In this document: positions 40,699-56,249 of the stretch, piece by piece
Layout of the letters: the number at the start of each line of letters is the position of its first letter
Numbering within the stretch: position 1 is the stretch's first letter
Origin: Georgenia muralis
Lineage (GTDB): Bacteria; Actinomycetota; Actinomycetes; Actinomycetales; Actinomycetaceae
DNA: 64,000 nt
Assembly: GCF_003814705.1 (NCBI RefSeq)
Contig: NZ_RKRA01000001.1
Coordinates: forward strand, 62,001 to 126,000
Direction of reading: 5' to 3'
The notes under the pieces: generated by a model
The model's input: the letters and a program-made list of their open reading frames with translations, nothing else
What the model was told of the DNA's origin: nothing
Database searches by the model: none
Position numbers and translations under genes: made by a program

Positions 40699-40817
40699 GT
40701 GTTCGGCGGTGTCCTACTCTCCCACACAGTCTCCCGTGCAGTACCATCGGCGCTGAGGGGCTTAGCTTCCGGGTTCGGAATGGGACCGGGCGTTTCCCCC
40801 TCGCTATGACCGCCGTA
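40699..40817 (-). rRNA. rrf: 5S ribosomal RNA, operon A
   Basis: The minus strand reads ACGGCGGTCATAGCGAGGGG at the 5' end, contains CCGAACCCGGAAGCTAAGCC, and ends GGACACCGCCGAACACC. These are typical 5S segments, and the length is about 119 bases. Ends are estimated by pairing of the terminal stem. Confidence 0.93.
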
Positions 40818-40962
40818 ACTCTGTCGAGTTGTCGCAACCGTTCCGTCACCCCGTGACCACCAGCTGGCCCCCGTGTGGGGGTGTGGTGGGTGGGGTGCCG
40901 GGGTGCGTTACCCGGGAACCGTACAGTGGACGCAAGCAGCTGTTTGATGCTTTGTGTTGTGG

Positions 40963-45892
<4,930 letters not shown>

Positions 45893-46398
45893 AAAAACAC
45901 TCGCCAAACCACACCCAAAAGCGCGGCCGACAAACCATACGAAGAGCACACCCCCAACCCACCAAAGCAGGCCAAGAGCAAACCCATGACTACACACACC
46001 CAGACCCAACCGGGGGCCAGGACCAGGCGCGATAACCAAAACAAAACAAAGACCCCAGACACCACAACCAACCCCCCCACCCACAAAAAGCAGGAAGACC
46101 AGCCACGACACCCAGAATCAAATGGCATCAAAAACTTGGCACACTGTTGAGTTCTCAAGAAACAGACACACACCACCCAGACCCGAAACAACCCCCGGAC
46201 CCGAACTGGGGCAACCTCTCTAACTTATACCCCCCACCGCACCCAGTCAACTTCACCAGTCTCCCAGCTCCATCGACCGAACCACGCCGGCCAGGCACCC
46301 CACCAACGACCGCAGCACAACACCACGAACCGAAGAGGGAAAGTCCCGCGGGAACGGCCACCATCACGGTGTCCGTACCTCCCTGGCGGGACTCAGAA
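45893..46398 (-). promoter_or_regulatory. rRNA operon A leader with inner promoter P2
   Basis: The leader before 16S is G/T-rich on the transcribed strand. TTGACT (46245-46250) and TAAGTT (46222-46227), 17 bases apart, form a likely inner promoter. Further on, TTGAGAACTCAACAGTGTGC with a following AAGTTTTT (46130-46158) is a conserved actinobacterial rRNA leader word probably used in processing or antitermination. Confidence 0.65.
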
Positions 46399-46599: not shown

Positions 46600-48306
46600 C
46601 TACTCGAGGATCGCTCCCCGGGAGGCCGAGCGGACGAGCTTGGTGTACTTGCCGAGGACGCCCTTGGTGTACCGGGGCGGCAGCGGCTGCCAGCCGTCGC
46701 GGCGACGGGACAGCTCGGCGTCGTCGACGAGAAGCTCGAGGCGACCACCGGCGACGTCGAGCCGGATCTGGTCGCCGTCCTGGATGAACGCGATGGGACC
46801 GCCGTCGACCGCCTCGGGGGCGATGTGTCCCACGCACAGACCGGTGGTGCCACCCGAGAACCGGCCGTCCGTGAGCAGCAGGACGTCCTTGCCGAGGCCG
46901 GCGCCCTTGATGGCGCCGGTGATCGCGAGCATCTCGCGCATGCCCGGCCCACCCTTGGGCCCCTCGTACCGGATCACGACAACGTCCCCATGACCGATCG
47001 TGCCGTTCTCGAGCGCGTCCATCGCAGCCCGTTCGCGGTCGAACACGCGCGCGCTGCCCTCGAAGACGTCGGACTCGAAGCCGGCCGACTTCACGACGGC
47101 GCCCTCGGGAGCGAGCGAGCCGTGGAGGATCGTGATGCCACCGGTCGGGGCGATCGGGGTCGACGCCGCGCGGAGCACCTTCCCGTCCGGTGCGGGCGGG
47201 TCGAGCTTCTCGAGGTTCTCCGCCACGGTCTGGCCCGTGACCGTCATGCAGTCACCGTCGAGGAGGCCGGCGTCGAGCAGCGACCTCATGACCACCTGGA
47301 TGCCACCCACCCGGTCCACGTCGTTCATGACGTAACGGCCGTAGGGCTTGAGGTCGGCGAGGTGGGGCACCTTGGCGCCGATGCGCCGGAAGTCGTCGAG
47401 GGTGAGGTCGACGTCCGCCTCGTGGGCGACGGCCAAGAGGTGGAGAACCGCGTTCGTCGAACCGCCGAAGGCCTGGACCACCGCGATGGCGTTCTCGAAC
47501 GCTGCCTTCGTCATGATGTCGTGGGAGGTGATGCCCTGCCGGAGCAGCTCCACCACGGCCTCCCCGGCCCGTCGGGCGGCGGCGTCGCGGCGCCGGTCGG
47601 CCGACGGCGGGCTGGCCGAACCGGGGATCGACATGCCGATCGCCTCGGCGACCGTCGCCATGGTGTTCGCCGTGTAGTAGCCACCACAGGCACCCTCACC
47701 GGGACAGATCGCGCGCTCGATCCGCTCGAGGTCCTCGGTGCTCATGAGGCCGCGGGAGCAGGCTCCGACCGCCTCGAACGCATCGATGATGGTCACGTCC
47801 TTCTCGGTGCCGTCCGAGAGCTTGACCCATCCCGGCATGATGGTGCCGGCGTAAATGAAGACGCTCGCCAGGTCGAGCCGCGCCGCTGCCATGAGCATGC
47901 CGGGAAGCGACTTGTCACAGCCGGCGAGCAGGACCGATCCATCGAGGCGCTCCGCCTGCATGACGGTCTCGACGGAGTCGGCGATCACGTCCCGCGAGAC
48001 CAGCGAGAAGTGCATCCCCTCGTGCCCCATCGAGATCCCGTCAGAGACCGAGATGGTCCCGAACTGGAGGGGATACCCGCCACCTGCGTGGACACCGTCC
48101 TTCGCGGCCTGCGCCAGCCGGTCGAGGGAGAGGTTGCAAGGAGTGATCTCGTTCCAGGAGCTCGCGACGCCGATCTGGGGCTTGGCGAAGTCCTCGTCAC
48201 CCATACCCACCGCTCGAAGCATGCCGCGCGCGGCGGTGGCCTCGATGCCATCCGTGACCGTGCGGCTACGGGGCTTGATGTCCGGGCCGGTAGCTGTGTC
48301 ATCCAT
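46600..48306 (-). CDS. ilvD: Dihydroxy-acid dehydratase
   Basis: IlvD is the Fe-S dehydratase that makes the 2-oxoacids of valine and isoleucine after IlvC. The 568-residue protein shows [56 protein letters not shown] (the three cluster cysteines) and [26 protein letters not shown] (48314-48319) lies seven bases before the ATG, so it is leaderless. The gene lies between two rRNA operons, away from ilvBNC. An IS has landed 149 bases upstream and duplicated the promoter and first codons. Confidence 0.96.
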
Positions 48307-48455
48307 GCGACTGAGTCTAGAGCGACCCGCTTCCCCCGCTGCGCATGTGGTCGAGCGTCGGACACCGGCACGGGCTAACCGGCGCGGCGCCCTTCGGCGC
48401 GTGGGCGCGATCAAGGCCCGGGCTGGCATCGGTGTCCGCTGGGCGTGACGTCCGA
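48285..48455. repeat. Left copy of the long target duplication
   Basis: These 171 bases, from GGCCGGTAGCTGTGTC to GGGCGTGACGTCCGA, recur unchanged at 50244-50414 on the other side of the IS. They hold ilvD codons 1-7 and about 149 bases upstream, including its -10 box. One base at the edge is ambiguous, so 172 bp is also possible. Confidence 0.92.
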
Positions 48456-50243
48456 CCTGAGTTTGGTCACCGCGTCGCGCTGCGGGATCGCGTAGTTCGT
48501 TGACCTGCGGTGATGGGAGCGTGGGAGGCGGTTCTGAGGCACTAATTGGTGCTCTACCGTGGGGTTTGTGGCGTGGATCCGGCGGGTGCGGACGGCCTCG
48601 GGGGCGACGGCCGTGCAGATCGCTGAGTCCGTTGGGGGTCGTCGGCGGATCGTCGTGCACGTCGGGTCGGCGCATACCGAGGCCGAGCTCGGGCTGCTCG
48701 TCGAGCGGGCGCGGGAGCTGCTGGACGACCCGGGCCAGGACCAGCTCGACCTCGGCCTCGAGCCGGCGGCGCCCAGAACGACGCTGATCGGCCGGCCCGG
48801 AGTGGCGGCTCTCTTCGGCGAGCCGGGCTCCCCGGTACAGGAGCGGCGGGGACCGGTCGCACCGCCCCGGGTGGTGGCGACCTCCTCTCGGGTGCTCTAC
48901 GACGCACTCGCCGCGGTGTTCACCGATCTGGGGTTCGACGCCCTGGGCGATGAGGTGTTCCGGGACCTGGTGATCGCCCGGATCGTGGAGCCGACCTCGA
49001 TCCTGGACACCGCCCGGGTGCTGACCGACCTCGGCGTGAGGCCGGCGAGTGAGAAGACGATGCGCCGCACCCTGGCCCGGGCCGCGGCCGGCGAGGGGCC
49101 CGGCGCCTACCGGGACAAGGTCGCCGCGTTGTGCTTCACCCACGCGGTGACCAGCGGTGACGTCTCGCTGTGCTTGTACGACGTGACGACGTTGTACTTC
49201 GAGGCGGAGAAGGAGGACGACCTGCGCAAGGTCGGCTACTCCAAGGAACGCCGCGTCGACCCGCAGATCGTCGTCGGCCTGCTCGTCGACCGGCACGGGT
49301 TCCCGCTCGAGATCGGCTGCTACGAGGGCAACCAGGCCGAGACCGCCACGATCGTGCCGATCGTCAAGCAGTTCCAGGACCGGCACGGCGTCGAGGACAT
49401 GGTCGTCGTCGCCGACGCCGGGATGCTCTCGGCGGGCAACCTGGCCGCTCTGGAGGAGGCGAACCTGCGCTTCATCGTCGGCTCCCGGGTGACCAAGGCA
49501 CCGCTGGACCTGGCCTCGCACTTCCGCTGGCACGGGGACGCGTTCACCGACGCCCAGGTCATCGACACCCTCACGCCCCGGACCGGGCGGCACCGCAGCG
49601 AGAACAACGAAGCGGTCAAGGTCGAGCCGATCTGGGACCGTGACCGCCACCCTGGGTCGTGGCGGGCGGTCTGGGCCTACTCGGCCAAGCGGGCGGCGCG
49701 GGACGGGAAGACGTTGACGTTGCAGGAGAACCGGGCCCGCGCGGTCATCGCCGGGGAGAAGGCCACCCGGACCCCGCGGTTCGTCAAGACCACCGGTGAC
49801 GCGCGCAGCCTGGACGAGGCCGCCCTCGCCAGGGCGCGGCGCCTGGTCGGGCTCAAGGGCTACGTCACGAACATCCCCGCCCGGCTGATGCCCGCGGGTG
49901 AGGTCATCGGGTCGTACCACGAGCTCTGGCACGTCGAGCAGTCGTTTCGGATGTCCAAGACCGATCTGGCCGCCCGGCCCATGTTCGTTCGAACCCGGGA
50001 CGCGATCGAGGCCCACCTGACCATCGTGTTCACCGCACTGGCCGTCTCCCGCGAGGTCCAGGCCCGCTCTGGGCTCGCGATCCGCAACGTCATCCGCCAG
50101 CTCCGGCCGCTGCGCTCAGCGACCATCACGGCCAACGGCGCCACCCAAACCATCCCGCCGCACATCGACCCCGACCGACGGACCATCATCGACGCCCTCA
50201 CGACCGGGAAAACTCAGGCACTAAGCGAATGACCGAACTCAGG
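48456..50243 (+). mobile_element. IS1634-family insertion sequence with long target duplication
   Basis: The element is 1,788 bp. Its ends are CCTGAGTTTGGTCA on the left and, inverted, CCTGAGTTCGGTCA on the right (13 of 14 match). One transposase gene fills it. The flanking repeats are 171 bp and identical. The related mycobacterial IS1549 is known for unusually long and variable target duplications, which supports assignment to this group. Identical flanks suggest a recent insertion. It lies between the rRNA operon B terminator and ilvD. Confidence 0.92.
48559..50232 (+). CDS. IS1634-family transposase
   Basis: The 557-residue DDE transposase shows [20 protein letters not shown] with the first Asp, [14 protein letters not shown] with the second Asp, and [17 protein letters not shown] with the catalytic Glu. 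The last fits the Y-(2)-L-(3)-E-(6)-K pattern of the IS4 superfamily. The frame is intact, so the element may be active. A GTG start at 48559 gives the full protein. The stop lies 11 bases before the right end. It is transcribed opposite to ilvD. Confidence 0.93.
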
Positions 50244-50265
50244 GGCCGGTAGCTGTGTCATCCAT
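50239..50265 (-). pseudogene. Duplicated ilvD start: 8-codon remnant
   Basis: The right target duplication carries the ilvD ATG and first codons. The frame reads MDDTATGP and then hits a TGA made at the IS edge. Its TAGACT box (50273-50278) is intact, so this start could still be transcribed into the IS, antisense to the transposase. Confidence 0.85.
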
Positions 50266-50414
50266 GCGACTGAGTCTAGAGCGACCCGCTTCCCCCGCTG
50301 CGCATGTGGTCGAGCGTCGGACACCGGCACGGGCTAACCGGCGCGGCGCCCTTCGGCGCGTGGGCGCGATCAAGGCCCGGGCTGGCATCGGTGTCCGCTG
50401 GGCGTGACGTCCGA
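50244..50414. repeat. Right copy of the long target duplication
   Basis: This repeats 48285-48455 exactly, including the ilvD promoter on the minus strand. Beyond it, 50415-50496 holds a short G-rich spacer with no gene before the rRNA operon B repeat. Confidence 0.92.
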
Positions 50415-50550: not shown

Positions 50551-50669
50551 GTGTTCGGCGGTGTCCTACTCTCCCACACAGTCTCCCGTGCAGTACCATC
50601 GGCGCTGAGGGGCTTAGCTTCCGGGTTCGGAATGGGACCGGGCGTTTCCCCCTCGCTATGACCGCCGTA
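50551..50669 (-). rRNA. rrf: 5S ribosomal RNA, operon B
   Basis: The sequence is the same as the operon A 5S gene. Ends are estimated from the terminal stem. Confidence 0.93.
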
Positions 50670-50814
50670 ACTCTGTCGAGTTGTCGCAACCGTTCCGTCA
50701 CCCCGTGACCACCAGCTGGCCCCCGTGTGGGGGTGTGGTGGGTGGGGTGCCGGGGTGCGTTACCCGGGAACCGTACAGTGGACGCAAGCAGCTGTTTGAT
50801 GCTTTGTGTTGTGG

Positions 50815-55743
<4,929 letters not shown>

Positions 55744-56249
55744 AAAAACACTCGCCAAACCACACCCAAAAGCGCGGCCGACAAACCATACGAAGAGCAC
55801 ACCCCCAACCCACCAAAGCAGGCCAAGAGCAAACCCATGACTACACACACCCAGACCCAACCGGGGGCCAGGACCAGGCGCGATAACCAAAACAAAACAA
55901 AGACCCCAGACACCACAACCAACCCCCCCACCCACAAAAAGCAGGAAGACCAGCCACGACACCCAGAATCAAATGGCATCAAAAACTTGGCACACTGTTG
56001 AGTTCTCAAGAAACAGACACACACCACCCAGACCCGAAACAACCCTCGGACCCGAACTGGGGCAACCTCTCTAACTTATACCCCCCACCGCACCCAGTCA
56101 ACTTCACCAGTCTCCCAGCTCCATCGACCGAACCACGCCGGCCAGGCACCCCACCAACGACCGCAGCACAACACCACGAACCGAAGAGGGAAAGTCCCGC
56201 GGGAACGGCCACCATCACGGTGTCCGTACCTCCCTGGCGGGACTCAGAA
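55744..56249 (-). promoter_or_regulatory. rRNA operon B leader with inner promoter P2
   Basis: TTGACT (56096-56101) and TAAGTT (56073-56078) are 17 bases apart, as in operon A. The only leader difference seen is T at 56046 instead of C, 27 bases after the -10. Confidence 0.65.

What the first reader, a model, noticed from the sequence alone, without database searches (positions are those of the whole stretch)
48285..50414. Insertion sequence flanked by an identical ~171-bp target duplication
The IS at 48456-50243 has 14-bp inverted ends and is bordered by two identical direct repeats of 171 (or 172) bp. Most insertion sequences duplicate 2-14 bp. The transposase belongs to the IS1634/IS4 superfamily, whose mycobacterial member IS1549 is known for long, variable duplications. 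Here the duplicated segment holds a promoter and gene start, so transposition itself copies regulatory DNA. The perfect identity suggests a recent event.
Basis: partly seen in the sequence, partly recalled or inferred. Interest (0 to 1): 0.85.

Follow-up and report, generated by a model that had tools for sequence, protein, structure and literature searches.

The report
Jumping gene with long target duplications
A bacterial jumping gene of a known family copies anywhere from a few to several hundred bases of its landing site, seemingly because its two ends can choose their landing points separately, which makes a mechanism left open in the literature testable.

Summary
A 1788-bp IS1634-family element (48456-50243) lies between exact 171-bp direct repeats, upstream of ilvD in a Georgenia genome. 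A sister species has the empty site with one copy, so the repeat arose with the insertion; two more sites agree. Two other copies in this genome have 32- and 30-bp duplications. Long, variable duplications are known for IS1549 and IS1634, so this is a new member of a known kind; a 2008 review says no mechanism had been proposed. Among 123 curated relatives, 75 have long duplications (23-738 bp where measured without gaps), 16 have 4-5 bp, 2 have 8 or 11 bp and 30 have none. Near-identical copies in one genome make both 5-bp and long ones, so within this clade the element does not fix the length. In long insertions both junctions carry the same one-end target motif (about CG^TSNNA), independent of each other; 5-bp targets look like two such motifs overlapped. 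Best explanation: the two ends mostly integrate separately, tens to hundreds of bp apart on opposite strands, and the host copies the segment between. Site choice is shown statistically; the chemistry is inferred. Whether copies without duplication are deletions is unresolved.

The parts
48456..50243 (+). Insertion sequence of the IS1634 family, 1788 bp
   Evidence: TIRs and TSD; two more full copies in the genome (100% and 99.0% identical)
48285..48455 (.). Left copy of the 171-bp target duplication (22 nt of ilvD plus 149 bp upstream)
   Evidence: exact repeat; one copy per locus in sister genome G006
50244..50414 (.). Right copy of the 171-bp target duplication
48456..48469 (+). Left terminal inverted repeat CCTGAGTTTGGTCA
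50230..50243 (-). Right terminal inverted repeat CCTGAGTTCGGTCA (13 of 14 match)
48559..50232 (+). Transposase, 557 aa; D208, D286 and E460 conserved in 99-100% of 112 aligned proteins (window included); Y453, L456, E460, K467 (YREK motif without the R)
   Evidence: the names DDE and YREK for these positions are read from the review's spacing
48534..48545 (+). Left subterminal direct repeat CTGAGGCACTAA, 78 bp in from the left end
50213..50224 (+). Right subterminal direct repeat CTCAGGCACTAA, 19 bp from the right end
48451..48455 (+). Left-end target site TCCGA (T at -5, A at -1) just before the left junction; the next bases of the empty site, GA, do not match the CG of the motif
   Evidence: motif statistics
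48283..48285 (+). Right-end target site CG^G at the start of the duplicated segment (has the CG of the motif but not the T)
   Evidence: motif statistics
46600..48306 (-). ilvD, dihydroxy-acid dehydratase, reading frame complete
   Evidence: frame; TIGR00110 709.9 bits (cut-off 618.15) for 46604-48306
50553..50669 (-). 5S rRNA gene, end of the rRNA operon on the other side of the insertion

Best explanation
This is a recently active IS1634-family insertion sequence whose two ends need not insert as one unit. Each transposase-bound end recognises its own short target site, about 5'-CG^TSNNA on the strand it joins. When two such sites overlap head to head (CG^TCNGA^CG) both ends insert 5 bp apart and leave an ordinary 5-bp duplication. 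More often in this clade the two ends join opposite strands at separate sites 23 to several hundred bp apart. The host then copies the intervening target segment by strand-displacement synthesis from the two nicks, leaving the IS between long direct repeats; here 171 bp. Shown: IS, TSD, origin of the TSD with the insertion, variable length from near-identical elements, equivalent and independent site choice at the two ends, scarcity of 12-22 bp duplications. Inferred: separate strand transfers on one duplex, strand-displacement repair, and limitation of length by the repair tract or a tether.
For: Empty sites with one copy of the segment in the sister genome at 3 of 3 loci compared: window 171 bp, L012 30 bp, L015 224 bp. 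Own-genome copies: 171, 32, 30 bp. 123 curated elements: 68 with TSD of 23-738 bp, 16 with 4-6 (15 of 5, one of 4), 2 with 8 or 11, 37 with none by ungapped calling; 7 of those 37 have gapped, displaced or degenerate long repeats. Near-identical elements in one genome make both kinds: G443, IS 99.5-99.6% identical with open frames of 520 aa in the two checked, 5, 72 and 96 bp; G518, identical IS, 11, 75 and 341; G598, identical transposases, 5 and 322. In the long class both junctions show T at -5 (29/66 and 34/67, about 12 expected each), G or C at -2 (60/66, 53/67), A at -1 (33/66, 31/67), C at +1 (35/66, 42/67), G at +2 (34/66, 38/67); binomial p 6e-3 for the weakest, otherwise 9e-4 to 1e-9; A at -1 on one side does not predict it on the other (Fisher p 0.48). 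A matrix trained on right-end sites places real left-end sites at the median 89th percentile of 200 neighbours (mean 0.79), and the reverse 90th (mean 0.77) (n=64). No helical phasing (p 0.735). 12-22 bp: 0 observed, 7.1 expected from the exponential or 6.3 from a flat density, with 148 of 148 planted repeats recalled.
Against: No biochemistry. 30 of 123 elements have no TSD; if the two attacks were fully free in order, about as many target deletions as duplications would be expected, and I could not find out whether these 30 are deletions (uninformative). The partner half-site 5 bp away is also slightly better than its neighbours at long junctions (percentile 0.63 and 0.59), which could mean a full 5-bp complex sat at each site, although T at -5 is itself part of the one-end motif. 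On the tree the kind of duplication needs 34 changes against a shuffled mean of 36.4, as low in 18 of 200 shuffles, so weak clustering is not excluded. Two of the mixed examples have blemishes: the G025 5-bp copy carries a 1-base indel that shortens its open frame to 400 of 523 aa, and the G598 5-bp copies are 138 bp longer than the long-duplication copy (in L203 an extra copy of the 3' end with an N beside it). Genome survivors are filtered by selection: a long duplication can leave a complete copy of a gene edge, so the excess of long ones may be inflated. The 12-22 bp gap bounds were set after seeing the data. Lengths fit a lognormal (KS p 0.88) as well as an exponential (0.50), so the shape proves no mechanism. 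The window's own sites match the motif only in part.
Confidence: 0.62

Rival explanations
1. The two ends attack the two sister duplexes behind a replication fork (one end each), guided by binding of the transposase to the sliding clamp; the recombinant sister carries the long duplication and the other a deletion.
For: An IS1634-family transposase binds the beta clamp, and a variant with tighter binding transposes more (PMC4549789, abstract and passages). It too predicts independent one-end sites and variable length.
Against: For the clamp-binding element studied, the figure legend lists one six-base sequence per copy, which it calls inverted repeats and I read as 6-bp target duplications. No clamp motif was tested here. 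Inter-sister distances need not be limited to a mean of about 110 bp above a floor of 23.
Confidence: 0.2
2. Two ordinary 5-bp insertions of the same IS a short distance apart, followed by unequal recombination between the two copies.
For: It gives the same final anatomy and would also leave target motifs at both junctions.
Against: It predicts the 5-bp target signature at each junction. C at -4 is in 15 of 16 short targets (0.94) but in only 47 of 133 long junctions (27/66 and 20/67), near background. It needs two close insertions per event, yet long duplications are the majority.
Confidence: 0.06
3. Each element subtype has its own fixed mode (long-duplicating and short-duplicating elements).
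For: The distant branch (under 37% identity) shows mostly 5 bp: 8 copies with 5 bp and 1 with 43 bp when ends must match 12 of 14. Geobacillus ISGka5 gives 6 bp (PMC8024623).
Against: Inside the actinobacterial clade identical or near-identical elements make both. In the distant branch a looser end search also finds exact repeats of 336 bp (L225) and 122 bp (L164), so long ones occur there too.
Confidence: 0.05
4. The target already held the repeat and the IS landed between the copies.
For: None found.
Against: The sister genome carries one copy at the three loci compared; lengths and sequences differ from site to site.
Confidence: 0.01

Closest known systems
IS1549 (Mycobacterium smegmatis) and IS1634 (Mycoplasma mycoides)
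   Same: IS1634 family; long, variable direct repeats, 8-514 bp depending on the copy (PMC2266710, passages)
   Different: Their primary papers were not held, so target motifs and ends could not be compared. The window element is from Georgenia, and its relatives here show 5-bp and long duplications from one element.
IS1634-family members with short repeats (Acidiphilium IS1634-1 to -3, Geobacillus ISGka5)
   Same: Same family by name; the 5-bp outcome of the window's relatives resembles theirs
   Different: ISGka5 made a 6-bp direct repeat (PMC8024623, passages); six-base sequences are listed for the Acidiphilium copies, called inverted repeats there (PMC4549789, legend). No long duplication in the passages read.
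Restriction-modification units inserting with long target duplications (order of 100 bp)
   Same: Long variable target duplication on insertion of a mobile unit (PMC3874152, passages)
   Different: A restriction-modification unit, not an IS; no transposase is named in the passages read
Non-LTR retrotransposons (LINE-type target-primed reverse transcription)
   Same: Variable duplication lengths from two separately placed nicks (recalled, not from a call)
   Different: RNA intermediate and reverse transcriptase (recalled); analogy of outcome only

Membership tests
IS1634 family | Transposase above the curated IS1634 model cut-off | tested here: met
   NF033559 394.2 bits against 100
IS1634 family | Size 1500-2000 bp | tested here: met
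   1788 bp; range from PMC2266710 Table 1
IS1634 family | Ends C-----YT | tested here: met
   CCTGAGTT at both ends; consensus from PMC2266710
IS1634 family | DDE triad with an incomplete YREK motif (R usually missing) | tested here: met
   D208, D286, E460; Y453-L456-E460-K467, L in place of R
IS1634 family | Target duplication of the family: 5-6 bp, or long and variable as in IS1549 and the namesake IS1634 (PMC2266710) | tested here: met
   By the long variable alternative only: the window copy has 171 bp and does not meet 5-6 bp; 16 of 123 relatives have 4-5 bp
Long-duplication group (IS1549/IS1634 behaviour) | Long repeats of different length at different copies of one element | tested here: met
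   171, 32, 30 bp in one genome
Long-duplication group (IS1549/IS1634 behaviour) | Duplication absent from the empty site | tested here: met
   3 of 3 loci
Long-duplication group (IS1549/IS1634 behaviour) | Sequence kinship to IS1549 itself | not tested
   IS1549 sequence and paper not at hand

The most novel reading that the evidence does not exclude
One DDE transposase works in two interchangeable modes: a coupled mode that joins both ends 5 bp apart at a palindromic site, and an uncoupled mode in which two separate end complexes, kept at least about 23 bp apart by their own footprint, each pick a half-site and the host replicates the target instead of the transposon. Target duplication length would then report repair or tether length and not enzyme geometry, and the no-TSD insertions would be the opposite-polarity (deletion) outcome of the same reaction.
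Probability: 0.4. Interest if true: 0.8.

Novelty: new member of a known kind. Interest (0 to 1): 0.55.

Why it matters
A fixed target duplication is usually read as the fixed spacing of the two active sites of a transposase. A clade in which near-identical elements make both a 5-bp and a widely variable duplication breaks that rule. The review read here says no mechanistic model had been proposed for the variable size (PMC2266710, passage). The one-end motif, the scarcity of 12-22 bp duplications and the mixed copies of near-identical elements give that question concrete, testable predictions. In practice, IS annotation that expects short repeats would overlook these target duplications.

Tried and rejected
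Helical phasing of duplication length: none. GC-shifted duplicated segments: no difference from flanks (mean +0.003, p 0.57, n=64). Fixed length per element: rejected inside the clade. Two insertions plus recombination: disfavoured. Target deletions at the no-TSD copies: not resolved. The L057 left flank matched only its own genome among 9 searched. L214 shares sequence with another IS copy of its genome and looks chimeric. The L323 right flank is conserved in relatives, but its left flank matched none of 11. Plasmid empty sites for L266, L267, L268 and L271: none seen in the rows listed; one row for L266 (H81) covers parts of both sides and was not followed. Translated fragments flanking no-TSD copies pointed to repeats missed by ungapped calling in L109, L111, L132 and L211; one search confirmed them. 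No structure prediction was run.

Rows dropped before the counts: 292 tblastn chains; 51 without a TIR call; 241 called, 183 unique by flanks; 155 with at least 200 bp on both sides and length 1500-2150; 123 after length 1590-1830, TIR at least 11 of 14 and identity at least 37%. Automatic hold wrong ends and were superseded. One search shows L110 with no duplication because it took a second element at that locus, which lies at the contig edge; the counted L110 element has 111 bp. Of the 7 repeats found by gapped comparison, L120 and L185 are displaced on the left side, L092 lies in a repetitive stretch with Ns, and L111 has an indel. L214 is counted among the 30 without TSD but left out of the 29 scored.
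Full report
WHAT IS THERE. The window lies in a single-contig 4.14-Mb genome. Its closest transposase relatives among named contigs are in Georgenia, and unnamed same-genus genomes carry the same loci (L056 and L017, L057 and L038), which is how I name the genus. At 48456-50243 sits a 1788-bp insertion sequence with 14-bp imperfect inverted ends, between two identical 171-bp direct repeats. Its single gene is an IS1634-family transposase with conserved D208, D286, E460 and an R-less YREK motif, as the review describes for that family (PMC2266710, passages). The insertion lies between ilvD and a 5S rRNA gene. The repeat holds the first 22 nt of ilvD and 149 bp upstream of it, so the complete ilvD keeps its own first 149 bp upstream.

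THE REPEAT CAME WITH THE INSERTION. The sister genome G006 has ilvD and 5S rRNA joined with one copy of the segment; it holds this region at two loci, each with one copy. The site rebuilt by joining the window's flanks aligns to it in one piece. So do two more cases: a 224-bp duplication in G006 that is single in the window genome, and a 30-bp one in the window genome that is single in G006. In the 7 other same-genus genomes the spacer was too diverged to align across. The window genome's other two full copies have 32 and 30 bp. One of them is 100% identical to the window copy over 1788 bp, so transposition is recent.

A SURVEY OF RELATIVES. 241 had both ends called, 183 were unique, 155 had room on both sides, and 123 passed the final filter. 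Ungapped calling gives 68 duplications of 23-738 bp, 16 of 4-6 bp (15 of 5 and one of 4), two of 8 and 11 bp, and 37 with none. Gapped comparison finds long repeats in 7 of those 37, against 0 of 60 swapped-flank controls; some of the 7 are displaced, degenerate or in repetitive sequence. That makes 75 long, 16 short, 2 in between and 30 without. Lengths of the 68 have median 92. An exponential (mean 114 above 20 bp) and a lognormal fit about equally, and there is no helical phase. No duplication of 12-22 bp was seen where 6 to 7 would be expected, and the caller finds 148 of 148 planted ones; the bounds were chosen after looking.

ONE ELEMENT, TWO OUTCOMES. Near-identical copies in one genome make both kinds. 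The cleanest cases are G443 (IS 99.5-99.6% identical: 5, 72 and 96 bp) and G518 (identical IS: 11, 75 and 341 bp). G598 has identical transposases with 5 and 322 bp, but its 5-bp copies are 138 bp longer. G025 has 5, 64 and 365 bp, but its 5-bp copy has a shortened frame. By contrast, three copies in G324 all have 5 bp. On a tree of 112 transposases the kind of duplication is not clearly clustered (34 changes; shuffled mean 36.4; as low in 18 of 200). In the distant branch, below 37% identity, 8 copies have 5 bp and 1 has 43 bp when the ends must match 12 of 14; a looser end search adds exact repeats of 336 and 122 bp (L225, L164). Two of those 5-bp copies are in the window genome itself, so the host alone does not force long duplications.

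EACH END PICKS ITS OWN SITE. In long insertions the two junctions lie far apart, yet both show the same motif in the same orientation relative to their own IS end: T at -5, G or C at -2, A at -1, C at +1, G at +2, that is about CG^TSNNA on the joined strand. A at -1 on one side does not predict it on the other, and a matrix trained on one end finds the sites of the other. The short targets look like two of these motifs overlapped, TCNGA with C at -4 in 15 of 16; long junctions lack that C (47 of 133). So long duplications are unlikely to be two ordinary 5-bp events stitched together by recombination.

MECHANISM. The simplest reading is that the two ends are joined to opposite strands at two separate sites, each with its own end complex, and that repair synthesis displaces and copies the strands in between. 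A lower limit near 23 bp fits two complexes side by side. The fall-off with length fits a limited repair tract or tether. Both of these are inference. A replication-fork version, with one end joined to each sister, is the main rival: a relative's transposase binds the sliding clamp (PMC4549789, abstract and passages), although short six-base repeats are listed for that element. The copies without any duplication still sit on better-than-neighbour half-sites at both ends (n=29), so they could be the opposite-polarity outcome, target deletions, or products of recombination between copies. I could not tell which.

A FURTHER FEATURE. The elements carry a subterminal direct repeat ending in CACTAA, most often starting 84-86 bp from the left end and lying 15-20 bp from the right end. 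The hexamer is present in the left 150 bp of 101 and in the right 80 bp of 96 of 123 elements; its reverse complement in the same stretches is found in 13 and 0. Among 93 elements with one hexamer on each side, the four bases before it agree more than expected: 10 of 21 distinct pairs are identical, against a mean of 1.2 and a maximum of 6 in 5000 shuffles; common descent is not removed by that control. A transposase binding site is my guess. Its direct, asymmetric layout is unlike the symmetric inverted ends.

WHAT IS KNOWN. IS1549 and IS1634 were reported to make repeats of 8-514 bp, and the review states that no mechanistic model had been proposed (PMC2266710, passages). Their primary papers are not held and I did not read them. 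In the open library I saw no title or abstract proposing a one-end model (search listings; passages of seven papers), but most subscription papers are missing from it. The element is therefore a new member of a known kind. What this work adds is the survey, the mixed outcomes of near-identical elements and the one-end motif.

Noticed in passing
48534-48545 and 50213-50224; relatives: Subterminal direct repeat ending in CACTAA at nearly fixed distances from both IS ends, with neighbouring bases that agree between the two sides.
   Followed up: partly
G000:C1:3023714-3027278 (L011): A different IS1634-family element with a 5-bp duplication (TGAGT) ends exactly where the 32-bp duplication of the second window-type copy begins.
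   Followed up: no
L120, L185: Long repeats whose left copy lies 48 or 201 bp away from the IS left end while the right copy is flush; L092 looks similar but lies in a repetitive stretch with Ns.
   Followed up: partly
window 40701-45893 and 50553-55744; G006:C1:2814470 and 2822311: ilvD lies between two rRNA operons with equal model scores; the sister genome G006 has two ilvD-rRNA copies about 7.8 kb apart.
   Followed up: no
29 no-TSD elements: Elements without any duplication still have better-than-neighbour half-sites at both junctions (mean percentiles 0.76 and 0.87).
   Followed up: partly
G003:C3:91307-98067 (L020, L042): Two IS copies about 5 kb apart share the 12 bases before the left junction but differ on the right, as after recombination or a local duplication.
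   Followed up: no
L203 (G598:C1:274000-281300), L204: Two 1784-bp copies are 138 bp longer than L317 of the same genome; in L203 the extra is a second copy of the 3' end next to an N, perhaps an assembly join.
   Followed up: partly
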